IMG/VR virus record: IMGVR_UViG_3300020174_000035
Span: 1 to 33,081 of that record
DNA: 33,081 nucleotides
From: a virus
Direction: 5' to 3' (one strand)
This document shows, piece after piece, positions 6,562 to 28,805 of the stretch. Position 1 is the stretch's first letter; each line of letters starts with the position of its first letter. The notes beneath the pieces are model-generated. The model worked only from the letters and a program-made list of their open reading frames with translations. It was not told where the DNA came from and did no database searches. A program made the position numbers and the translations under genes.

Positions 6562-6987
6562 TTATGAGTCAATCAGGCCAGGAAAGGCCTTTTCTACAGT
6601 CTTAGCAGTAATACCTTTATACGGAAGTTTCTTATCTTTCACTGCAAGTATCAATTTCGCCTCATCTGGATGAATACTTTCCAGTAGCTCAATGAATAGC
6701 ATCTCGCGCTTAGGCTGTGTCAGACCAGGCGAACCACCTTTTAGAAAGATATAGAAACTACGAAAGCGACCATACAGACCAGACTCATTGTTCTCAAGTA
6801 CTTTGTCTTCTTTGTATGGAGGTGAACCTTCTGGAAGATCAAACTCGACTCTTGGATCAAATGCGTATTTCAATAATGAAATCATCACTTTGTTTCCTCG
6901 ATGATAGAGTAGATGATCTACTTTCTCTTTCGTTGTCTTCTTCTCTGATACCTCTTTCAAGACAGTACTGACTAATGGTAATGGCAT
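6562..6987 (-). CDS. DUF6433-like T4-superfamily protein
   Basis: A 141-residue protein. Features I recognise from the DUF6433 family are an N-terminal helix pair with a TTKEKVDHLLYH pattern, DPRVEFDLPEGSPPYK, the KREMLFIELLESIHPDEAKL helix, and an ending in LPYKGITAKTVEKAFPGLI. The family occurs in many marine T4-like phages next to rnh or recombination genes and has no assigned function. The LLESIHPDEA plus AVKDKKLPYKGIT layout suggests a helical adaptor. GGAG lies upstream of the ATG, which follows the RNase H gene by one base. Confidence 0.75.
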   Translation of the reverse strand: MPLPLVSTVLKEVSEKKTTKEKVDHLLYHRGNKVMISLLKYAFDPRVEFDLPEGSPPYKEDKVLENNESGLYGRFRSFYIFLKGGSPGLTQPKREMLFIELLESIHPDEAKLILAVKDKKLPYKGITAKTVEKAFPGLIDS

Positions 6988-6988
6988 T

Positions 6989-7852
6989 TTAAAACTCCGA
7001 TATACATTCAGTTAAAAGTTTCAGTTTGTTCTTAATGAAGTAATTGAACAAGTCTTTTCGGCTCTTGCCTTCTTGCTCACCAAACTGTGTGAGAACGTCT
7101 TCTCTGATATTATCTGGTGTATTGCTCAGATCAATCAGTTTAACGTTGCGATGATAGTTGCGAGTAATTTCGCTGGTGAATAAGGTACAGTCTTCTGGCC
7201 AATCAGCAGATAGAACTGCATCAATGAATTTTGCTCGAATGGGCTTCTGTCGACCACCACTAACGAATGTATCGTCAGGTGATAACACATTAGGAACACC
7301 GTCACCAGAATCTCCACGTAGAACATGTTCTAGAAGAAATTGTGCTGGATCGTTGCATCGAAGCCAACGCTTCCGTACAGGATCATATTGCTCGACATTT
7401 GCGAACTTCTGCAACTGTTGGAAGTCTTTGTCGCCTGACAGAATCAAAATAGGATCACCACCGACTGGCATGCCATATTCGTAGCAGAGTACACCGATGA
7501 TATCGTCTGCTTCAGCATGTTCTGATTGTATGACACGATAGGGAAAATACTCTTTGATCTCATCACGAATTTTGTTGAGTGAGGTAAAGATGCTGTTCCA
7601 GTCAAGATCAGATTTTTCTCTGTTCTTCCGACGGGACGCTTTGTAGTAAGGAAAGAGTTGCTTGCGCCAGTAATTCTTATCATCACAGGCAATTACGAGT
7701 TCGCCGTATTCAGAACCAAACTTTACACGATTCATACGGATTGAGTTGAGTATCATATGCCGAAGTAGATTCTCATCGACATCTATGGAATGACCTTGAA
7801 GTGACATCATCAGGTTAGATATCATCACTTGGTTTAAGTCTAAAATAATCAC
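6989..7852 (-). CDS. rnh: T4 RNase H-like 5'-3' exonuclease (FEN family)
   Basis: A 287-residue protein with FEN-type nuclease signatures: Asp5 in MIILDLNQ, the CDD at 56-58 followed by a basic KASRRKNREK helical arch, AEADD at 113-117, the SGDKDFQQL motif at 139-147, and the GDSGDGVPNV helix-hairpin-helix at 180-189. These acidic clusters bind the two metals. T4 RNase H removes RNA primers from lagging-strand fragments, and the primase encoded at 16198 would be a functional partner. A strong sigma70 promoter with a 13-bp palindrome lies just upstream, so this gene probably heads its own early transcript. Confidence 0.93.
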   Translation of the reverse strand: MIILDLNQVMISNLMMSLQGHSIDVDENLLRHMILNSIRMNRVKFGSEYGELVIACDDKNYWRKQLFPYYKASRRKNREKSDLDWNSIFTSLNKIRDEIKEYFPYRVIQSEHAEADDIIGVLCYEYGMPVGGDPILILSGDKDFQQLQKFANVEQYDPVRKRWLRCNDPAQFLLEHVLRGDSGDGVPNVLSPDDTFVSGGRQKPIRAKFIDAVLSADWPEDCTLFTSEITRNYHRNVKLIDLSNTPDNIREDVLTQFGEQEGKSRKDLFNYFIKNKLKLLTECISEF

Positions 7853-23509: not shown

Positions 23510-25267
23510 TTACCAGAAGAAATTGCCACCACCTGACATACCTAGTGATTTCGCATAACGAGGCAATCTACATGCCCAATAAGCCGCGGAAGTTTTGTCA
23601 GTTTGAGTTGAACACTTGTGTCTAGCGGCAAATGACTTTCTTGCTTCAGGATTATCAATCTTTGCTTTGAGACCAGTAGTGTCGCCGAATGTTACTTTTT
23701 TGATGTTGCCTGTGCTTGGATCTTTTACATAAACATAAAACTTTTTAGGACCACCACGTTTTGGTTTATTGAGTTCTTTACTCTCTTCACCTTCTTTCTC
23801 TTCTTCGATCATAGGACAATCGAGTGGTACCCATTCTTCATTATATTGTGCAAATTCACCGATGTCAGTATTTAAAATACTTTTATCATAGTCTGCAAAT
23901 TCAAGTCCAGATTTTCGTGCTTCATTAAATAATTTAAAATAATTAACACTGCCAACACGGAACACATTTTCTATTAGCGGCACTTCATTGTCTTTGTGAT
24001 ATTCAAGTGCTTCTTCGATCTGTGTTCTTTGATGATTTGCTAATGCAACATTCAGTGTTTGGAATACGTCTTTTTCTTCTGATATCTCATTCTTGAGATG
24101 TACATATTCTTTTTTGATTTCGTTGAGAGAGAGTCCATAACGCTCACTCTTTTTAATTAGATTTTTTTCAACTGATTCTGTAATGTTTTCCATGTCAATC
24201 TGTGTGAGCATTTCATTGATTATTTCAAGATATTCGAAATCTTGCTCAATGGAGTTCTTCAGATTTTTTCTTTGTTGAAAACTACGAAGTCTATCTTTCT
24301 CTGCCGATCTTACTTTCGGCAATAGCCGTTTTGCAATTTTTGTAATTGCGTCTTTTTTCTTTTCAAGTCTTCTATCGATTGCAATCTTAGATGAAGTTGA
24401 CAGCGATTTATAATCTTTGCCTTGTGCGCCCATCATTCTCTTACGAAGAAGTTCTCTAGCTTTTCTCTTTGATCGGACCTTTAATTTATCATTCGATGCA
24501 AGTCTGCGCATGGCTCTCATTCTACCACGCTTGATCTTTGACTTGATTCTGCGCATTGCTATCTTCTTGCGCATACGCTGTTGAATATTCAATACTTCTT
24601 GCAATGAAAGGTCTTCAGTAATACCCATTTGTGTACGAACAATTTCGTACATCTCTTTCGCGTCTCTATCCGTTAGCTTACGTGGAAGTCCACTCTTAAA
24701 TTCTTTGTATTTGCCTGCGACTGCTAATGCTCTTAACTTAGATGCGCTCATTCCTGATACGTCATCGGCATCTGGATCACGCTCACCAGCACTTACTATT
24801 TCGATGCTGTTGAATGTGTAATCTTTGCCGTTGTAATCGTTTAACAGTTTTTTGAACGCGGAGACTCTATCACTGCCCACAACAACCACAACATCTTTGA
24901 ATTTGTTGTCGAGTGTTTTGAGGACTTCGATGATAGTTCTAGCAGGAGACTTTACGACAATGTTGCCGAACGCTTTCTTTGCGAACTTGACCTTCTGGTC
25001 GTATGATAGTGGATTCTTTTTCTTGTCTTGCGAGTGTGATACGTATAGCTGTGGAGTTGCTTTACGTGATTTGGCTTCTTTGTTGATCTTGTCTACTAAC
25101 TTTTGGTGTCCCGATGTGATCGGATTCATTCGACCAAAAGATAGAACCACGACAGACCCACGCTCTTCGGATAGTTCATTTAGCTCATCAACAAGAGAAT
25201 TTTCCGCCGCCGCGGTTCGCCCGATTCCCTCATCATTATTGCTAGGAGTGTTTTCTTCTTTTTTCAT
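23510..25267 (-). CDS. Cytidylyltransferase-like nucleotidyltransferase fused to basic and C-terminal modules
   Basis: A 585-residue multidomain protein. Residues 38-190 are a nucleotidyltransferase of the HxGH superfamily: SFGRMNPITSGH (43-54) and MSASKLRALA (173-182). Residues 225-325 form a very basic helical stretch (MRRIKSKIKRGRMRAMRRLA). An acidic middle (340-500) follows. The C-terminus (540-585) is the ARHKCSTQTDK-(spacer)-YWACRLPRYAKSLG motif found at the end of several phage structural proteins. A TATAAATA promoter precedes it. The substrate may be a nucleotide or NMN-type molecule. The fusion to basic DNA-binding and virion-type parts suggests that the enzyme is a head component. 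Confidence 0.82.
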   Translation of the reverse strand: MKKEENTPSNNDEGIGRTAAAENSLVDELNELSEERGSVVVLSFGRMNPITSGHQKLVDKINKEAKSRKATPQLYVSHSQDKKKNPLSYDQKVKFAKKAFGNIVVKSPARTIIEVLKTLDNKFKDVVVVVGSDRVSAFKKLLNDYNGKDYTFNSIEIVSAGERDPDADDVSGMSASKLRALAVAGKYKEFKSGLPRKLTDRDAKEMYEIVRTQMGITEDLSLQEVLNIQQRMRKKIAMRRIKSKIKRGRMRAMRRLASNDKLKVRSKRKARELLRKRMMGAQGKDYKSLSTSSKIAIDRRLEKKKDAITKIAKRLLPKVRSAEKDRLRSFQQRKNLKNSIEQDFEYLEIINEMLTQIDMENITESVEKNLIKKSERYGLSLNEIKKEYVHLKNEISEEKDVFQTLNVALANHQRTQIEEALEYHKDNEVPLIENVFRVGSVNYFKLFNEARKSGLEFADYDKSILNTDIGEFAQYNEEWVPLDCPMIEEEKEGEESKELNKPKRGGPKKFYVYVKDPSTGNIKKVTFGDTTGLKAKIDNPEARKSFAARHKCSTQTDKTSAAYWACRLPRYAKSLGMSGGGNFFW

Positions 25268-25356: not shown

Positions 25357-26205
25357 TTACGGTGCAACCTTGTGTTGCATGTATTCTTCATGTGTTGTTA
25401 TCATCTTGTAACCAAGCCGTCTGAATACTGGCGTGGTCAACACTTCATTATATTTCTGTATTTGTTTCCAACTAAACTTTCTAATTTCTATCTTAGTGTA
25501 TTTAGCGTGCCTCGTAGAGTCCCACTTAGCAGACTGTGAAACTCTATCTGGTATTAATAGCTCTTTTTTTAAAGGAAAATTGAATTGCTCAGATATTTCA
25601 TCCATATGCCTCTGAGTATCTTCCTTCGACTGTATCAACTGCTCATACATTATTCTTTTATGATTCAGTGCTGGTTTACGTTTGAATACGCTGAACCAAT
25701 ATAATGTATGCTCTCTATATAGTTCACACAACCGCAATGTATTTAATGCTTGTTTTTTATCATTGAAAAAGACAAACTCATTGTCTTGATCTTCGCGTCT
25801 TGCGATAACCCATTTATATGTATTTAGTATATCTACGGATTTATTCGTAACACTCTCAAGCCACGAGTAAGGATGCTTGTGTATCCAAATGTAATTTTTA
25901 GATGTGATCGCAGGATTATCCACGTCCAATAGTTTGCTACCAGCTGGCGCTCGTGTCGAGTCCGTTTGCTGTCTTTCTATCTCAGGTCTATATAAGCCTT
26001 TCTCATTCTTCTGTGCAATCTTCAGGTCTTCTGGATCAACATCATAAGCATGTTTCCATATACCATTAAGCTGGCGTTGATGCCACATATTAATTATGCC
26101 CACTGATCTTTTTTGTTCACAATTATCTTTTAATAATTGTTCAAGAAAATTAGTGCCTGATCTCTGTAGTCCAAGAATTTGGAAGTTATGTTCATGCTTC
26201 GCCAT
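25357..26205 (-). CDS. Sulfotransferase-family protein
   Basis: A 282-residue protein. ILGLQRSGTNFLEQLL (residues 10-25) is the PAPS-binding loop (QRSGTNF) of sulfotransferases. A later IMYEQLIQSKEDTQRHMDEI fits the 3'-phosphate-binding region. Length matches the family. Phage sulfotransferases are rare but known in marine T4-like genomes; targets are not known. It lies between the ligase-like gene and the nucleotidyltransferase fusion and is probably co-transcribed with the upstream late genes. Donor specificity and target are not predictable. Confidence 0.82.
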   Translation of the reverse strand: MAKHEHNFQILGLQRSGTNFLEQLLKDNCEQKRSVGIINMWHQRQLNGIWKHAYDVDPEDLKIAQKNEKGLYRPEIERQQTDSTRAPAGSKLLDVDNPAITSKNYIWIHKHPYSWLESVTNKSVDILNTYKWVIARREDQDNEFVFFNDKKQALNTLRLCELYREHTLYWFSVFKRKPALNHKRIMYEQLIQSKEDTQRHMDEISEQFNFPLKKELLIPDRVSQSAKWDSTRHAKYTKIEIRKFSWKQIQKYNEVLTTPVFRRLGYKMITTHEEYMQHKVAP

Positions 26206-26208
26206 GCA

Positions 26209-27438
26209 CTATCTTTGCCATCCTTTAATTACATCTGGAGAAAAGTTAGCACGAGAGAATTCCATGCGATCAATAATTTTAACTGCTCCGTCTGACATGT
26301 GATCAATAGCAACAAAGCCTTCTTGATTCGTTACCTTAAATCCTTGCTTTGTTCTCAAGAATGTTCCTAGCGCAGTTGCTTGGTTCATCTTGTCTACAAT
26401 CATTTGTTTCGCATCAACGAGTAAATTCATCAGCATGAATAGATTCTGAAAGTCGGCCGAGTTGTGTCGTGTGAACACACTCATGACATCTTTTCTTTTC
26501 TGTGTCCACTCATCTTTAGACTTCTGTGTTTTCTTTTTGTCGATTTCTTTTTGATAGAAACTATGAATGTTATCGAACATGCCTTTCATATGAGTACGTG
26601 GATTAATTCGCTTGCCTTGCTTGATCAATGAATTATTGTATGCTTTTACTCTGATCAATAGTTCATTGTTATCTTTGAAAGCATTCAACAATGACGCTGG
26701 TACTTTTCTAAATGTTCTACCAGCATCTGATAGCAGTGATGTGATAGCATCTGTTTCTGCTTTTGTGAAGGTAGCGTTTCCTGTTTCGTCACGGTATGTC
26801 GCATCGGTTTGCCATATAGAACTACTCGCATTGAACTTCGATACTATGCTCTTGCCAAAAGAAGCAGACATAGATTCAAGACTATTACCGGTATAAGTAG
26901 TATGCCAAACCACTCCAATCTTAGCTCTTGCGATTTGTTTGCCAAGACTACTGTTAGTAGGAATAGCATAAACGATAGTATTAGGTTGGAAAGTATAATA
27001 AGATTGCCCATCAATGGTCTCCGTAGCTACATCTCCTTTCGTGAACATTAGATCGCCTTGATATACACCAGACTTAATACCTAACTTCGAAAACTCACTC
27101 AGTGCTATCAATAGCTTTTTCTGTAAGTCGCCTGACGTATCTGCTTTTACATCAGCAGGAGTCTTATAAACCTTTGGATTTTTGTTAAAAACGCCTTTCT
27201 TCGCGACAAAAAACTTGCCGTCACTTGGATCGATGCCCACAAACACAGCAGGCGCACCATCCCATTTCACAGTTCGAGATATCTTGCTTTTATTATGTCC
27301 AGCCAGCATGTCTCTAAGATCACGCAGAAAGTTAATTGCTTTTCGTGTGCCATCGACACCTTCGTTGAAGATCAAATCCTCAACGTGTTCCATATGAGTA
27401 TTTTTTTGTTCAATAAGAAACTGATTAAAATTTTTCAT
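26209..27438 (-). CDS. DUF6267-like protein with nucleic acid ligase-type nucleotidyltransferase motifs
   Basis: A 409-residue protein. Motifs in order match covalent nucleotidyltransferases: KWDG (58-61, Lys58 as the AMP-binding lysine), AKKG (79-82), YQGDL (126-130), EGFV (373-376) and VKIID (386-390). Motifs I, Ia and III have the spacing usual for ATP-dependent ligases. An insert of about 240 residues separates motifs III and IV. The N-terminus MKNFNQFLIEQ resembles the T4 capsid-targeting peptide. No OB-fold domain is obvious after motif V. It is co-expressed with a nuclease-like gene from a late promoter. Activity is inferred from motifs only. I recall the family as DUF6267 without a known function. 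Confidence 0.72.
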   Translation of the reverse strand: MKNFNQFLIEQKNTHMEHVEDLIFNEGVDGTRKAINFLRDLRDMLAGHNKSKISRTVKWDGAPAVFVGIDPSDGKFFVAKKGVFNKNPKVYKTPADVKADTSGDLQKKLLIALSEFSKLGIKSGVYQGDLMFTKGDVATETIDGQSYYTFQPNTIVYAIPTNSSLGKQIARAKIGVVWHTTYTGNSLESMSASFGKSIVSKFNASSSIWQTDATYRDETGNATFTKAETDAITSLLSDAGRTFRKVPASLLNAFKDNNELLIRVKAYNNSLIKQGKRINPRTHMKGMFDNIHSFYQKEIDKKKTQKSKDEWTQKRKDVMSVFTRHNSADFQNLFMLMNLLVDAKQMIVDKMNQATALGTFLRTKQGFKVTNQEGFVAIDHMSDGAVKIIDRMEFSRANFSPDVIKGWQR

Positions 27439-28805
27439 TAATATTTCAACTCGTAATTTACTAGACCTTGTTTAGCATCAATGTCATTGATCGCCGCTTT
27501 ACTTCCAATGAAAGATGTCTTCGCATTACCAGACAGTAAAAGTTTAAAGTAAACTTCGCCTTTCTTCCATTTATTTAGGTCTAAATTTGCTTGATAAAAA
27601 TTCTTGCCTGCAAGGATATTAGCAACGATGTCTTGTGATACAGAATCTTCATTTAGTCTTCTTGCGATTTCACGATTGAATGCAGAGGTGACTGATAATG
27701 GCAGTGCGTCTTTTACATTCTGCGGTATATCTGGATGCTTTGCAATCGCTGATATTACTTTCAATGTAGGCGCAGAAAAATCTGTCAGATTTCCTTTCAG
27801 TGAACCTTGACGTATCTCAGTGTACACTGCATATGGATCATTTACCTGTGACTGCTTCAGTCCTAAAATCTTTCTCACGCCGTATTCATATACAATGTCT
27901 TTTGATCCTTGCTTTGCATCGAGTTTCGCTTTTGTGATATTTGCTTTCTTTGCAGAATCAACTAAATCTTTAATCACGCTTGCGGGTAGATTTGTTTTGT
28001 TGATTACTTTCGGCAAGAAGTTGGTGAAGATAGACGCTTTAGCGCCTACTCCTGCTTTTGAAGAAATAGGAACAAGTGTGCCATCGTCCAACATTACAGC
28101 AGAGTCAACACCAGAGAAGGAAGGATCATCGGGTACAATAAACTTTTTTGCTTTTCCCTTGAATGGATTTTGCGATATCAGTGAAGATTTATTCTTGAGT
28201 GCGACAGCACCAATGATGATTTCACCGAGATATTTTCCAAGTTCATTTATCTCAGAGTCTTGAAATGACTTGTCTTGCCAATCGAAGTTTTTCAGTGATG
28301 TACTAGCAAACCATTCATCGACAGCATCAACAATATGATTGCCGACTTTATTCGAACTTTTCATGTAAGATATAACAGATGTTCTAAGTGTTTTGAGGTC
28401 GCTGAAAGTTTTACACGATACACCTTCTTGACCATTGATTGTCAATTTTTCGGAAGTGCCTTTCAGGATTAAATTGCTTGCTTGAATGCCTAGGTTCTCA
28501 GTCGCGCCCTTTGCGCCAGAGTATTGCATACCAAGTTTGCCAGCATTGATATTGGAACTAGACGAAACGGAAGTAGCATAATAGACTACACCCGCTTTCT
28601 TATTGCCAGTCTTTTCTTTAAAATAAAAGATAGCACCAGTTTTCTTCTTAGTGCCAATCTCATCAATGATCTTGTCAACATTTCCGACCAATGTCATGAC
28701 ATCTCTACTGAACTCGAATCCCGTATAGATGTATTCTTTATTGGTCTTTAAATGCTTAATAGCCTTACCGACATGTGCAGTAGGATGTGTTAGACCTCTG
28801 GCCAT
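27438..28805 (-). CDS. Late protein with PD-(D/E)XK-like nuclease features
   Basis: A 455-residue protein. An N-terminal beta-rich segment precedes GEIIIGAVALKN (about 194-205, with Glu195). DSAVMLDDGTLVPISSKAG then follows (234-252), with Asp234 and Lys250 placed as in restriction-fold nucleases where the usual D/E-x-K becomes S-x-K. The C-terminal 150 residues are helical. GGAG precedes the ATG and a TATAAATA promoter lies 29 bases upstream of it. The stop overlaps the ligase-like gene by one base (TAATG), so the two are a coupled late pair. Nuclease function is inferred and unproven; a structural protein is the alternative. Confidence 0.62.
   Translation of the reverse strand: MARGLTHPTAHVGKAIKHLKTNKEYIYTGFEFSRDVMTLVGNVDKIIDEIGTKKKTGAIFYFKEKTGNKKAGVVYYATSVSSSSNINAGKLGMQYSGAKGATENLGIQASNLILKGTSEKLTINGQEGVSCKTFSDLKTLRTSVISYMKSSNKVGNHIVDAVDEWFASTSLKNFDWQDKSFQDSEINELGKYLGEIIIGAVALKNKSSLISQNPFKGKAKKFIVPDDPSFSGVDSAVMLDDGTLVPISSKAGVGAKASIFTNFLPKVINKTNLPASVIKDLVDSAKKANITKAKLDAKQGSKDIVYEYGVRKILGLKQSQVNDPYAVYTEIRQGSLKGNLTDFSAPTLKVISAIAKHPDIPQNVKDALPLSVTSAFNREIARRLNEDSVSQDIVANILAGKNFYQANLDLNKWKKGEVYFKLLLSGNAKTSFIGSKAAINDIDAKQGLVNYELKY

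What the first reader, a model, noticed from the sequence alone, without database searches (positions are those of the whole stretch)
26209..27438. DUF6267-like protein carries all nucleic acid ligase motifs with a large insert
KWDG, AKKG, YQGDL, EGFV and VKIID appear in the right order, and motifs I to III have normal spacing. The roughly 240 residues between motifs III and IV are not seen in known ligases to my knowledge. This would make a family of unknown function a lysine-adenylating (or guanylating) enzyme of the phage late phase.
Basis: partly seen in the sequence, partly recalled or inferred. Interest (0 to 1): 0.8.

Follow-up and report, generated by a model that had tools for sequence, protein, structure and literature searches.

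The report
Possible missing DNA ligase of cyanophages
A very common marine-phage protein of unknown function has the fold and invariant active-site residues of DNA/RNA ligases, and its distribution suggests it is the catalytic half of a two-piece DNA ligase that these phages were thought to lack.

Summary
The gene is real: minus strand, 26209-27438, 409 aa, Pfam DUF6267 (E 3e-107). AlphaFold models are confident (pLDDT 87 and 91). For a natural short form the first 44 PDB fold matches are all covalent nucleotidyltransferases (DNA and RNA ligases, capping enzymes), each weak on its own (best E 0.03). So the ligase-type fold is well supported; activity is not shown. Corrections: motif III is D not E, the second motif V lysine is missing, there is no OB domain, the "insert" is a helical segment that is shorter in a quarter of relatives, and "late phase" is unsupported. 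New: the same window encodes DUF6433, a stand-alone T4-type ligase DNA-binding domain, next to T4 RNase H. All 19 DUF6267 genomes tested carry it and 18 lack a recognised DNA ligase; phiM12 and Cr30, with DUF6433 but no DUF6267, have a separate ligase lacking that domain. Best reading: DUF6267 is the catalytic subunit of a split cyanophage DNA ligase.

The parts
26209..27438 (-). DUF6267 gene, 409 aa; predicted covalent nucleotidyltransferase (ligase catalytic domain), cyanophage cluster T4-GC 71
   Evidence: Pfam PF19782 E 2.9e-107; AF2 pLDDT 87.3; PDB fold matches to ligases; short homologue's 44 top fold matches all covalent NTases
27256..27267 (-). motif I KWDG, nucleophile candidate Lys58
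   Evidence: K58, D60, G61 kept in 342/343 sequences, one gap; at the end of strand 53-58 in the model
27193..27204 (-). AKKG, Lys81 (position of the K/R-rich strand after motif I in RNA ligases)
   Evidence: K81 in 343/343
27049..27060 (-). motif III QGDL, Asp129 in place of the usual Glu
   Evidence: Q127 and D129 in 343/343; G128 is G or A; inside strand 125-133
26968..26985 (-). PNTIVY, probable motif IIIa, Tyr157
   Evidence: Y157 in 343/343; strand 155-160
26383..26763 (-). residues 226-352, enlarged helical segment between motifs IIIa and IV
   Evidence: six helices in the model; shorter in short-form homologues
26311..26322 (-). motif IV EGFV, Glu373
   Evidence: E373, G374 in 342/343, one gap
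26266..26283 (-). motif V VKIIDR, Lys387 and Arg391; second motif V lysine absent (I389)
   Evidence: K387, R391 in 342/343, one gap; position 389 V/I
6562..6987 (-). DUF6433 gene, 141 aa: stand-alone T4-type DNA ligase DNA-binding domain, proposed partner subunit
   Evidence: PF20025 E 6.6e-28; PHROG 114 'ATP-dependent DNA ligase' E 0.003; hhalign to DLP6/T4 ligase N-termini E 5.7e-6, prob 85.5; named a ligase DBD by Iyer et al. PMC7824862
6989..7852 (-). T4 RNase H / 5' flap nuclease, directly upstream of DUF6433
   Evidence: PF09293 E 3.3e-16, PF02739 E 1.9e-13; same order in S-CREM2 and phiM12
23510..25267 (-). HIGH-type nucleotidyltransferase ('cytidyltransferase', T4-GC 190), conserved downstream neighbour, fused to DUF6267 in S-PM2
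   Evidence: PF01467 E 3.1e-5; phrog_3041 E 4e-74; found downstream in 282 loci, missing in 11 with at least 3 kb of downstream sequence; fusion
27438..28805 (-). upstream gene, 455 aa, 1-base overlap with DUF6267; possible PD-(D/E)XK nuclease (GVDS...VPISSK), highly variable slot
   Evidence: no Pfam hit; motif recognised by eye in cluster consensus

Best explanation
DUF6267 is a divergent covalent nucleotidyltransferase of the polynucleotide ligase / RNA capping superfamily (about 0.93). It most likely attacks ATP (or NAD+) with Lys58 to form a lysyl-AMP, using Asp129, Tyr157, Glu373 and Lys387 to hold the nucleotide, and passes AMP to a 5'-phosphate (about 0.8 that it self-adenylylates). 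In these phages it most likely serves as the catalytic subunit of a two-piece DNA ligase: the separate T4-type ligase DNA-binding domain DUF6433, encoded in the same window beside T4 RNase H, would place it on nicks left by lagging-strand synthesis. Shown here: residues, predicted fold, co-occurrence and complementarity. Inferred: catalysis, nick sealing, physical partnership. The adjacent HIGH-type nucleotidyltransferase could regenerate NAD+ from NMN if the enzyme is NAD+-dependent; this is speculative.
For: Invariant catalytic residues in 45 diverse homologues down to 24-30% identity and in 342-343 of 343 sequences. AF2 model pLDDT 87; motif residues lie in or at the edges of strands. [quoted passage not shown] short homologue: ranks 1-44 all DNA ligases, RNA/tRNA ligases or capping enzymes. 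DUF6267 genomes lack known ligases: PF01068 in 1 of 18 (DLP6), PF09414 0/18, PF01653 0/18, PF09511 0/18 with T4 as positive control; P-SSM2 and S-CREM2 also lack PF01068. DUF6433 in 19/19 DUF6267 genomes, not in T4. phiM12 and Cr30 have DUF6433, no DUF6267 and a PF01068 ligase without the DBD; the 7 Sinorhizobium and 2 Caulobacter records with DUF6433 match in number the Sinorhizobium/Cr30 records with that ligase. Phage records: DUF6433 486, DUF6267 468-471, nearly the same organisms. Gene sits beside gp43/uvsX/gp41 in Syn1, P-SSM4, Syn33, HTVC008M, Melnitz and S-PM2. Literature: cyanomyoviruses lack a g30 ligase homologue, an unidentified distant homologue being one option the authors name (PMC2984593); stand-alone ligase DBD noted by PMC7824862.
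Against: No fold match reaches E 0.001 and TM-scores are low; no sequence-level match to any ligase family and none to T4 Rnl2 by profile comparison. No OB domain or motif VI, which nick-sealing DNA ligases normally need. Motif III E is D; second motif V lysine missing. The gene's nearest neighbours are a variable, possibly nuclease gene and a virion-detected nucleotidyltransferase (PMC3037559), not DUF6433, which lies about 19 kb away here. DLP6 carries DUF6267, DUF6433 and a full DNA ligase. Two Vibrio and one Pseudoalteromonas record have DUF6267 without appearing by name in the DUF6433 tally. Co-occurrence of two lineage-core genes is weak evidence of partnership; the authors of PMC2984593 favoured use of the host ligase.
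Confidence: 0.5

Rival explanations
1. RNA ligase (Rnl2/REL1-like) that repairs RNA, such as tRNAs cut by host defence nucleases.
For: No OB domain or motif VI, as in T4 Rnl2-type enzymes; fold matches include archaeal Rnl, Naegleria RNA ligase, REL1 and T4 Rnl2; motif V region KIIDRMEFS resembles Rnl2 KCKNSKFSE by eye (sequence); some upstream slots hold a HAD protein or P-loop kinase of the kind seen in end healing.
Against: Gene neighbourhood is DNA replication; presence/absence complements DNA ligases; best fold matches are as often DNA ligases.
Confidence: 0.22
2. Covalent nucleotidyltransferase working with its immediate neighbours (variable upstream gene and HIGH nucleotidyltransferase) in a nuclease-NTase module, for example DNA end processing, host takeover or inter-phage conflict, unrelated to Okazaki joining.
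For: Neighbour HIGH nucleotidyltransferase in 282 loci versus 11 informative loci without it, and fused in S-PM2; upstream slot falls into 20 sequence clusters, many with D...S/ExK motifs; T4-GC 190 was found in S-SM1 virions (PMC3037559).
Against: The upstream gene is not conserved, so it may simply be an insertion hotspot; nuclease assignment rests on motifs by eye only; the gene is near-universal in cyanophages, fitting a core replication role.
Confidence: 0.18
3. DUF6433 recruits the host NAD+-dependent LigA (as proposed by Iyer et al. for the DBD) and DUF6267 is a ligase-fold protein with a different job (AMPylation, capping) or a non-catalytic factor.
For: PMC7824862 and PMC2984593 favour host ligase; DLP6 keeps its own ligase as well.
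Against: All catalytic residues are invariant, which argues against a pseudo-enzyme; phiM12/Cr30 pair DUF6433 with a phage-encoded ligase.
Confidence: 0.1

Closest known systems
ATP-dependent DNA ligases (PF01068; T4 gp30, archaeal ligases)
   Same: Order of motifs I, III, IIIa, IV, V; predicted fold; best PDB fold matches; complementary distribution
   Different: No fused DNA-binding domain, no OB domain or motif VI, D in motif III, one lysine in motif V, no detectable sequence similarity
RNA ligases of the Rnl2/REL1/Rnl5 kind (PF09414)
   Same: NTase domain without OB; K/R strand after motif I; fold matches 5cou, 6vtd, 1xdn, 2hvr
   Different: III-IV spacing 150-250 versus about 105 in T4 Rnl2; no profile match
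NAD+-dependent LigA adenylation domain (PF01653)
   Same: Fold matches 3jsn, 3baa, 1tae; neighbour gene is NMNAT-like
   Different: No recognisable Ia domain; N-terminal HxxHxE is unlike the LigA NMN site as I know it
DUF6433 / T4-GC 313 stand-alone ligase DBD (Iyer et al. 2021)
   Same: Encoded by the same phages; homologous to the N-terminal domain of DLP6 and T4 ligases
   Different: Binding domain only, no catalytic motifs

Membership tests
Covalent nucleotidyltransferase superfamily (ligases, capping enzymes) | KxDG with invariant Lys | tested here: met
   342/343, one gap
Covalent nucleotidyltransferase superfamily (ligases, capping enzymes) | motifs III, IIIa, IV, V in order with conserved acidic, aromatic and basic residues | tested here: met
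   D129, Y157, E373, K387 invariant; motif III is D not E, second V lysine absent
Covalent nucleotidyltransferase superfamily (ligases, capping enzymes) | NTase fold | tested here: met
   44 of 44 top PDB matches for the short form, but E 0.03-0.9 and low TM; top 6 ligases for the window protein
Covalent nucleotidyltransferase superfamily (ligases, capping enzymes) | self-nucleotidylation on lysine | not testable with these tools
   needs biochemistry
ATP-dependent DNA ligase PF01068 | profile match | tested here: not met
   no hit at E<=1
ATP-dependent DNA ligase PF01068 | C-terminal OB domain with motif VI | tested here: not met
   22 residues after K387, one helix
RNA ligase PF09414 / Rnl2 | profile match | tested here: not met
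   no Pfam hit; hhalign with T4 Rnl2 family prob <1
NAD+-dependent ligase PF01653 | profile match including Ia domain | tested here: not met
   no Pfam hit
DUF6267 PF19782 | curated cut-off | tested here: met
   359.7 bits against 27
DUF6433 as ligase DBD (window 6562-6987) | homology to N-terminal domain of T4-type DNA ligases | tested here: met
   hhalign E 5.7e-6, prob 85.5, 129 columns; PHROG 114 E 0.003; PF20025 hits DLP6 ligase N-terminus E 6.5e-4

The most novel reading that the evidence does not exclude
T4-like cyanophages do encode their own DNA ligase, split into two separately encoded and separately annotated unknowns: DUF6433 (DNA-binding) and DUF6267 (catalytic), the latter lacking an OB domain and perhaps NAD+-dependent, with NMN recycled by the neighbouring HIGH-type nucleotidyltransferase.
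Probability: 0.4. Interest if true: 0.85.

Novelty: new variant of a known kind. Interest (0 to 1): 0.74.

Why it matters
T4-like cyanophages are among the commonest DNA viruses in the sea, and reviews state that they lack the T4 DNA ligase (PMC2984593) or, for the jumbo ones, any known ligase (PMC7824862). A near-universal gene of unknown function with a ligase active site, paired across genomes with an orphan ligase DNA-binding domain, offers a direct, testable answer to how these phages seal their DNA. It would also add a highly divergent family to the ligase superfamily and a natural two-piece ligase.

Tried and rejected
Sequence search of PDB with the protein and with the family profile: only coiled-coil chance hits. 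Pfam scan of all 45 members for a ligase family: none. Profile comparison with T4 Rnl2 relatives: no signal. BLASTP of DUF6433 against T4 gp30: no signal; needed profiles. PDB search with the HIGH nucleotidyltransferase domain: chance Hsp70 hits only, so NMNAT identity stays a guess; NCBIfam gives weak NMNAT leads below cut-off. The PHROG 455 'fusion' was checked: S-PM2 shows it in an early record as a split frame and as a 591-aa protein in BFVD. Upstream gene as a conserved partner: rejected, only 6 of 312 loci have a homologue of the window's. 'Late phase' claim: found no support.

Full report
OBSERVATION. The ORF at 26209-27438 is on the minus strand, 409 aa, and is Pfam DUF6267 (E 2.9e-107) and PHROG 455 (unknown function). 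No paper in the held library names DUF6267. On this one sequence alone the ordered pattern is not decisive: 86 of 20,000 shuffles and 4 of 899 unrelated ORFs from the same contigs contain a loose version.

CONSERVATION. Relatives are abundant: 461 of 50,697 phage records by tblastn, nearly all cyanophages, and hundreds of IMG/VR contigs. In 45 aligned representatives, down to 24-30% identity, 32 columns are invariant, among them H15, H18, E20, K58, D60, G61, K81, Q127, D129, Y157, H179, E373, G374, K387 and R391. In all 343 sequences these motif residues are kept in 342 or 343, the exception being one gap. The chance that seven motif residues all fall in invariant columns is about 1e-8.

FOLD. 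AF2 of the window protein with its family alignment gave pLDDT 87.3, pTM 0.82. Motif residues sit at or in strands (K58 at the end of strand 53-58, D129 in 125-133, Y157 in 155-160, E373 just before 374-379, K387 in 384-388). Foldseek against the PDB: top six are three archaeal ATP-dependent DNA ligases, two NAD+-dependent ligase adenylation domains and an archaeal RNA ligase, E 0.02-0.4. A natural short homologue (299 aa, pLDDT 91.0), which lacks most of the helical segment, gave 44 consecutive top matches that are all DNA ligases, RNA or tRNA ligases or mRNA capping enzymes, E 0.03-0.9. No single match is strong, but the uniformity leaves little doubt about the superfamily. Sequence methods see nothing, so the divergence is extreme.

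Motif III is Q(G/A)D rather than (D)GE; motif V has one lysine; there is no OB domain or motif VI. The 226-352 segment is helical and is shorter in 98 of 343 relatives, whose D129-E373 distance is about 150-170 instead of 240-250. T4 Rnl2 has about 105 (sequence). Nothing points to the late phase: in Syn1, P-SSM4, Syn33, S-PM2, HTVC008M and Melnitz the gene follows DNA polymerase, UvsX/RecA or helicase genes.

THE MISSING LIGASE. Clokie, Millard and Mann (PMC2984593) state that g30 DNA ligase homologues are not found in cyanomyoviruses. Iyer et al. (PMC7824862) state that most subgroup 2.1 jumbo phages (prototype P-SSM2) lack any known DNA ligase but carry a stand-alone ligase-type alpha-helical DNA-binding domain, P-SSM2 AAX44695.1. 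That protein is T4-GC 313, Pfam DUF6433. The window encodes it at 6562-6987 (E 6.6e-28), one base from a T4 RNase H gene at 6989-7852; RNase H then DUF6433 is also the order in S-CREM2 and Sinorhizobium phiM12. I tested the domain claim: DUF6433 aligns over its whole length with the N-terminal domains of the DLP6 and T4 ligases (hhalign E 5.7e-6, prob 85.5), and PF20025 itself hits the N-terminus of the DLP6 ligase (E 6.5e-4).

COMPLEMENTARITY. Of 18 DUF6267 records, mostly genome-sized, 17 lack PF01068 and all lack PF09414, PF01653 and PF09511 (T4 and relatives as positive controls). P-SSM2 and S-CREM2 have DUF6267 and DUF6433 and no PF01068. DUF6433 is in 19 of 19 DUF6267 genomes tested. phiM12 and Cr30 have DUF6433, no DUF6267, and a PF01068 ligase whose N-terminus is not the T4-type DBD. 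T4 has the one-piece ligase and neither DUF. DLP6 is the exception with everything. S-CREM1 has DUF6267 plus a sub-threshold PF01068 hit that looks like an Rnl5-type RNA ligase. Some of these genomes are close relatives, so the counts are not independent events.

NEIGHBOURS. A HIGH-type nucleotidyltransferase (T4-GC 190) lies downstream of DUF6267 in 282 loci and is missing in 11 loci with at least 3 kb of downstream sequence, and is fused to DUF6267 in S-PM2. Sullivan et al. list it as a core cyanophage protein detected in S-SM1 virions (PMC3037559). It could be an NMN adenylyltransferase, which would fit an NAD+-dependent ligase, but that is a guess. The gene upstream of DUF6267 is highly variable: 312 loci fall into 20 clusters, several with D...(S/E)xK motifs suggestive of PD-(D/E)XK nucleases, others a HAD protein, a P-loop kinase or a DNA methylase; this reading is by eye.

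MECHANISM. Supported by computation: superfamily fold and active site. Inferred: Lys58 forms lysyl-AMP; AMP moves to the 5' phosphate of a nick; DUF6433 supplies the DNA grip. The absent OB domain is the main difficulty; it may be supplied in trans, as in the RNA-editing ligases (own knowledge), or replaced by the helical segment.

VERDICT. Superfamily membership about 0.93; active nucleotidylating enzyme about 0.8; catalytic half of the cyanophage DNA ligase about 0.5.

Noticed in passing
window 27438-28805 and the same slot in 312 loci: The gene just upstream of DUF6267 varies between 20 different sequence clusters of about 190-580 aa, many with PD-(D/E)XK-like D...SxK/ExK signatures (window: GVDSAVMLDDGTLVPISSKAG); others are a HAD protein, a P-loop kinase or a DNA methylase.
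   Followed up: partly
window 23510-25267; L347: The neighbouring HIGH-type nucleotidyltransferase (T4-GC 190) is reported in S-SM1 virions and is fused to DUF6267 in S-PM2; its substrate is unknown.
   Followed up: partly
L334 (1363-2148 and 3422-4345): One contig of the P-TIM68 type carries two tandem short-form DUF6267 genes.
   Followed up: no
L347 (S-PM2, NC_006820): In the original S-PM2 record DUF6267 is split between two annotated genes, while the resequenced record gives one uninterrupted match; probably a sequencing frameshift.
   Followed up: partly
window 25357-26205: A sulfotransferase-like ORF (weak Pfam hit, E 7e-4, below cut-off) sits between DUF6267 and the nucleotidyltransferase.
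   Followed up: no
L413/L420 (S-CREM1): This cyanophage also encodes an ORF resembling Rnl5/DRB0094-type RNA ligases, a few kb from DUF6267.
   Followed up: no
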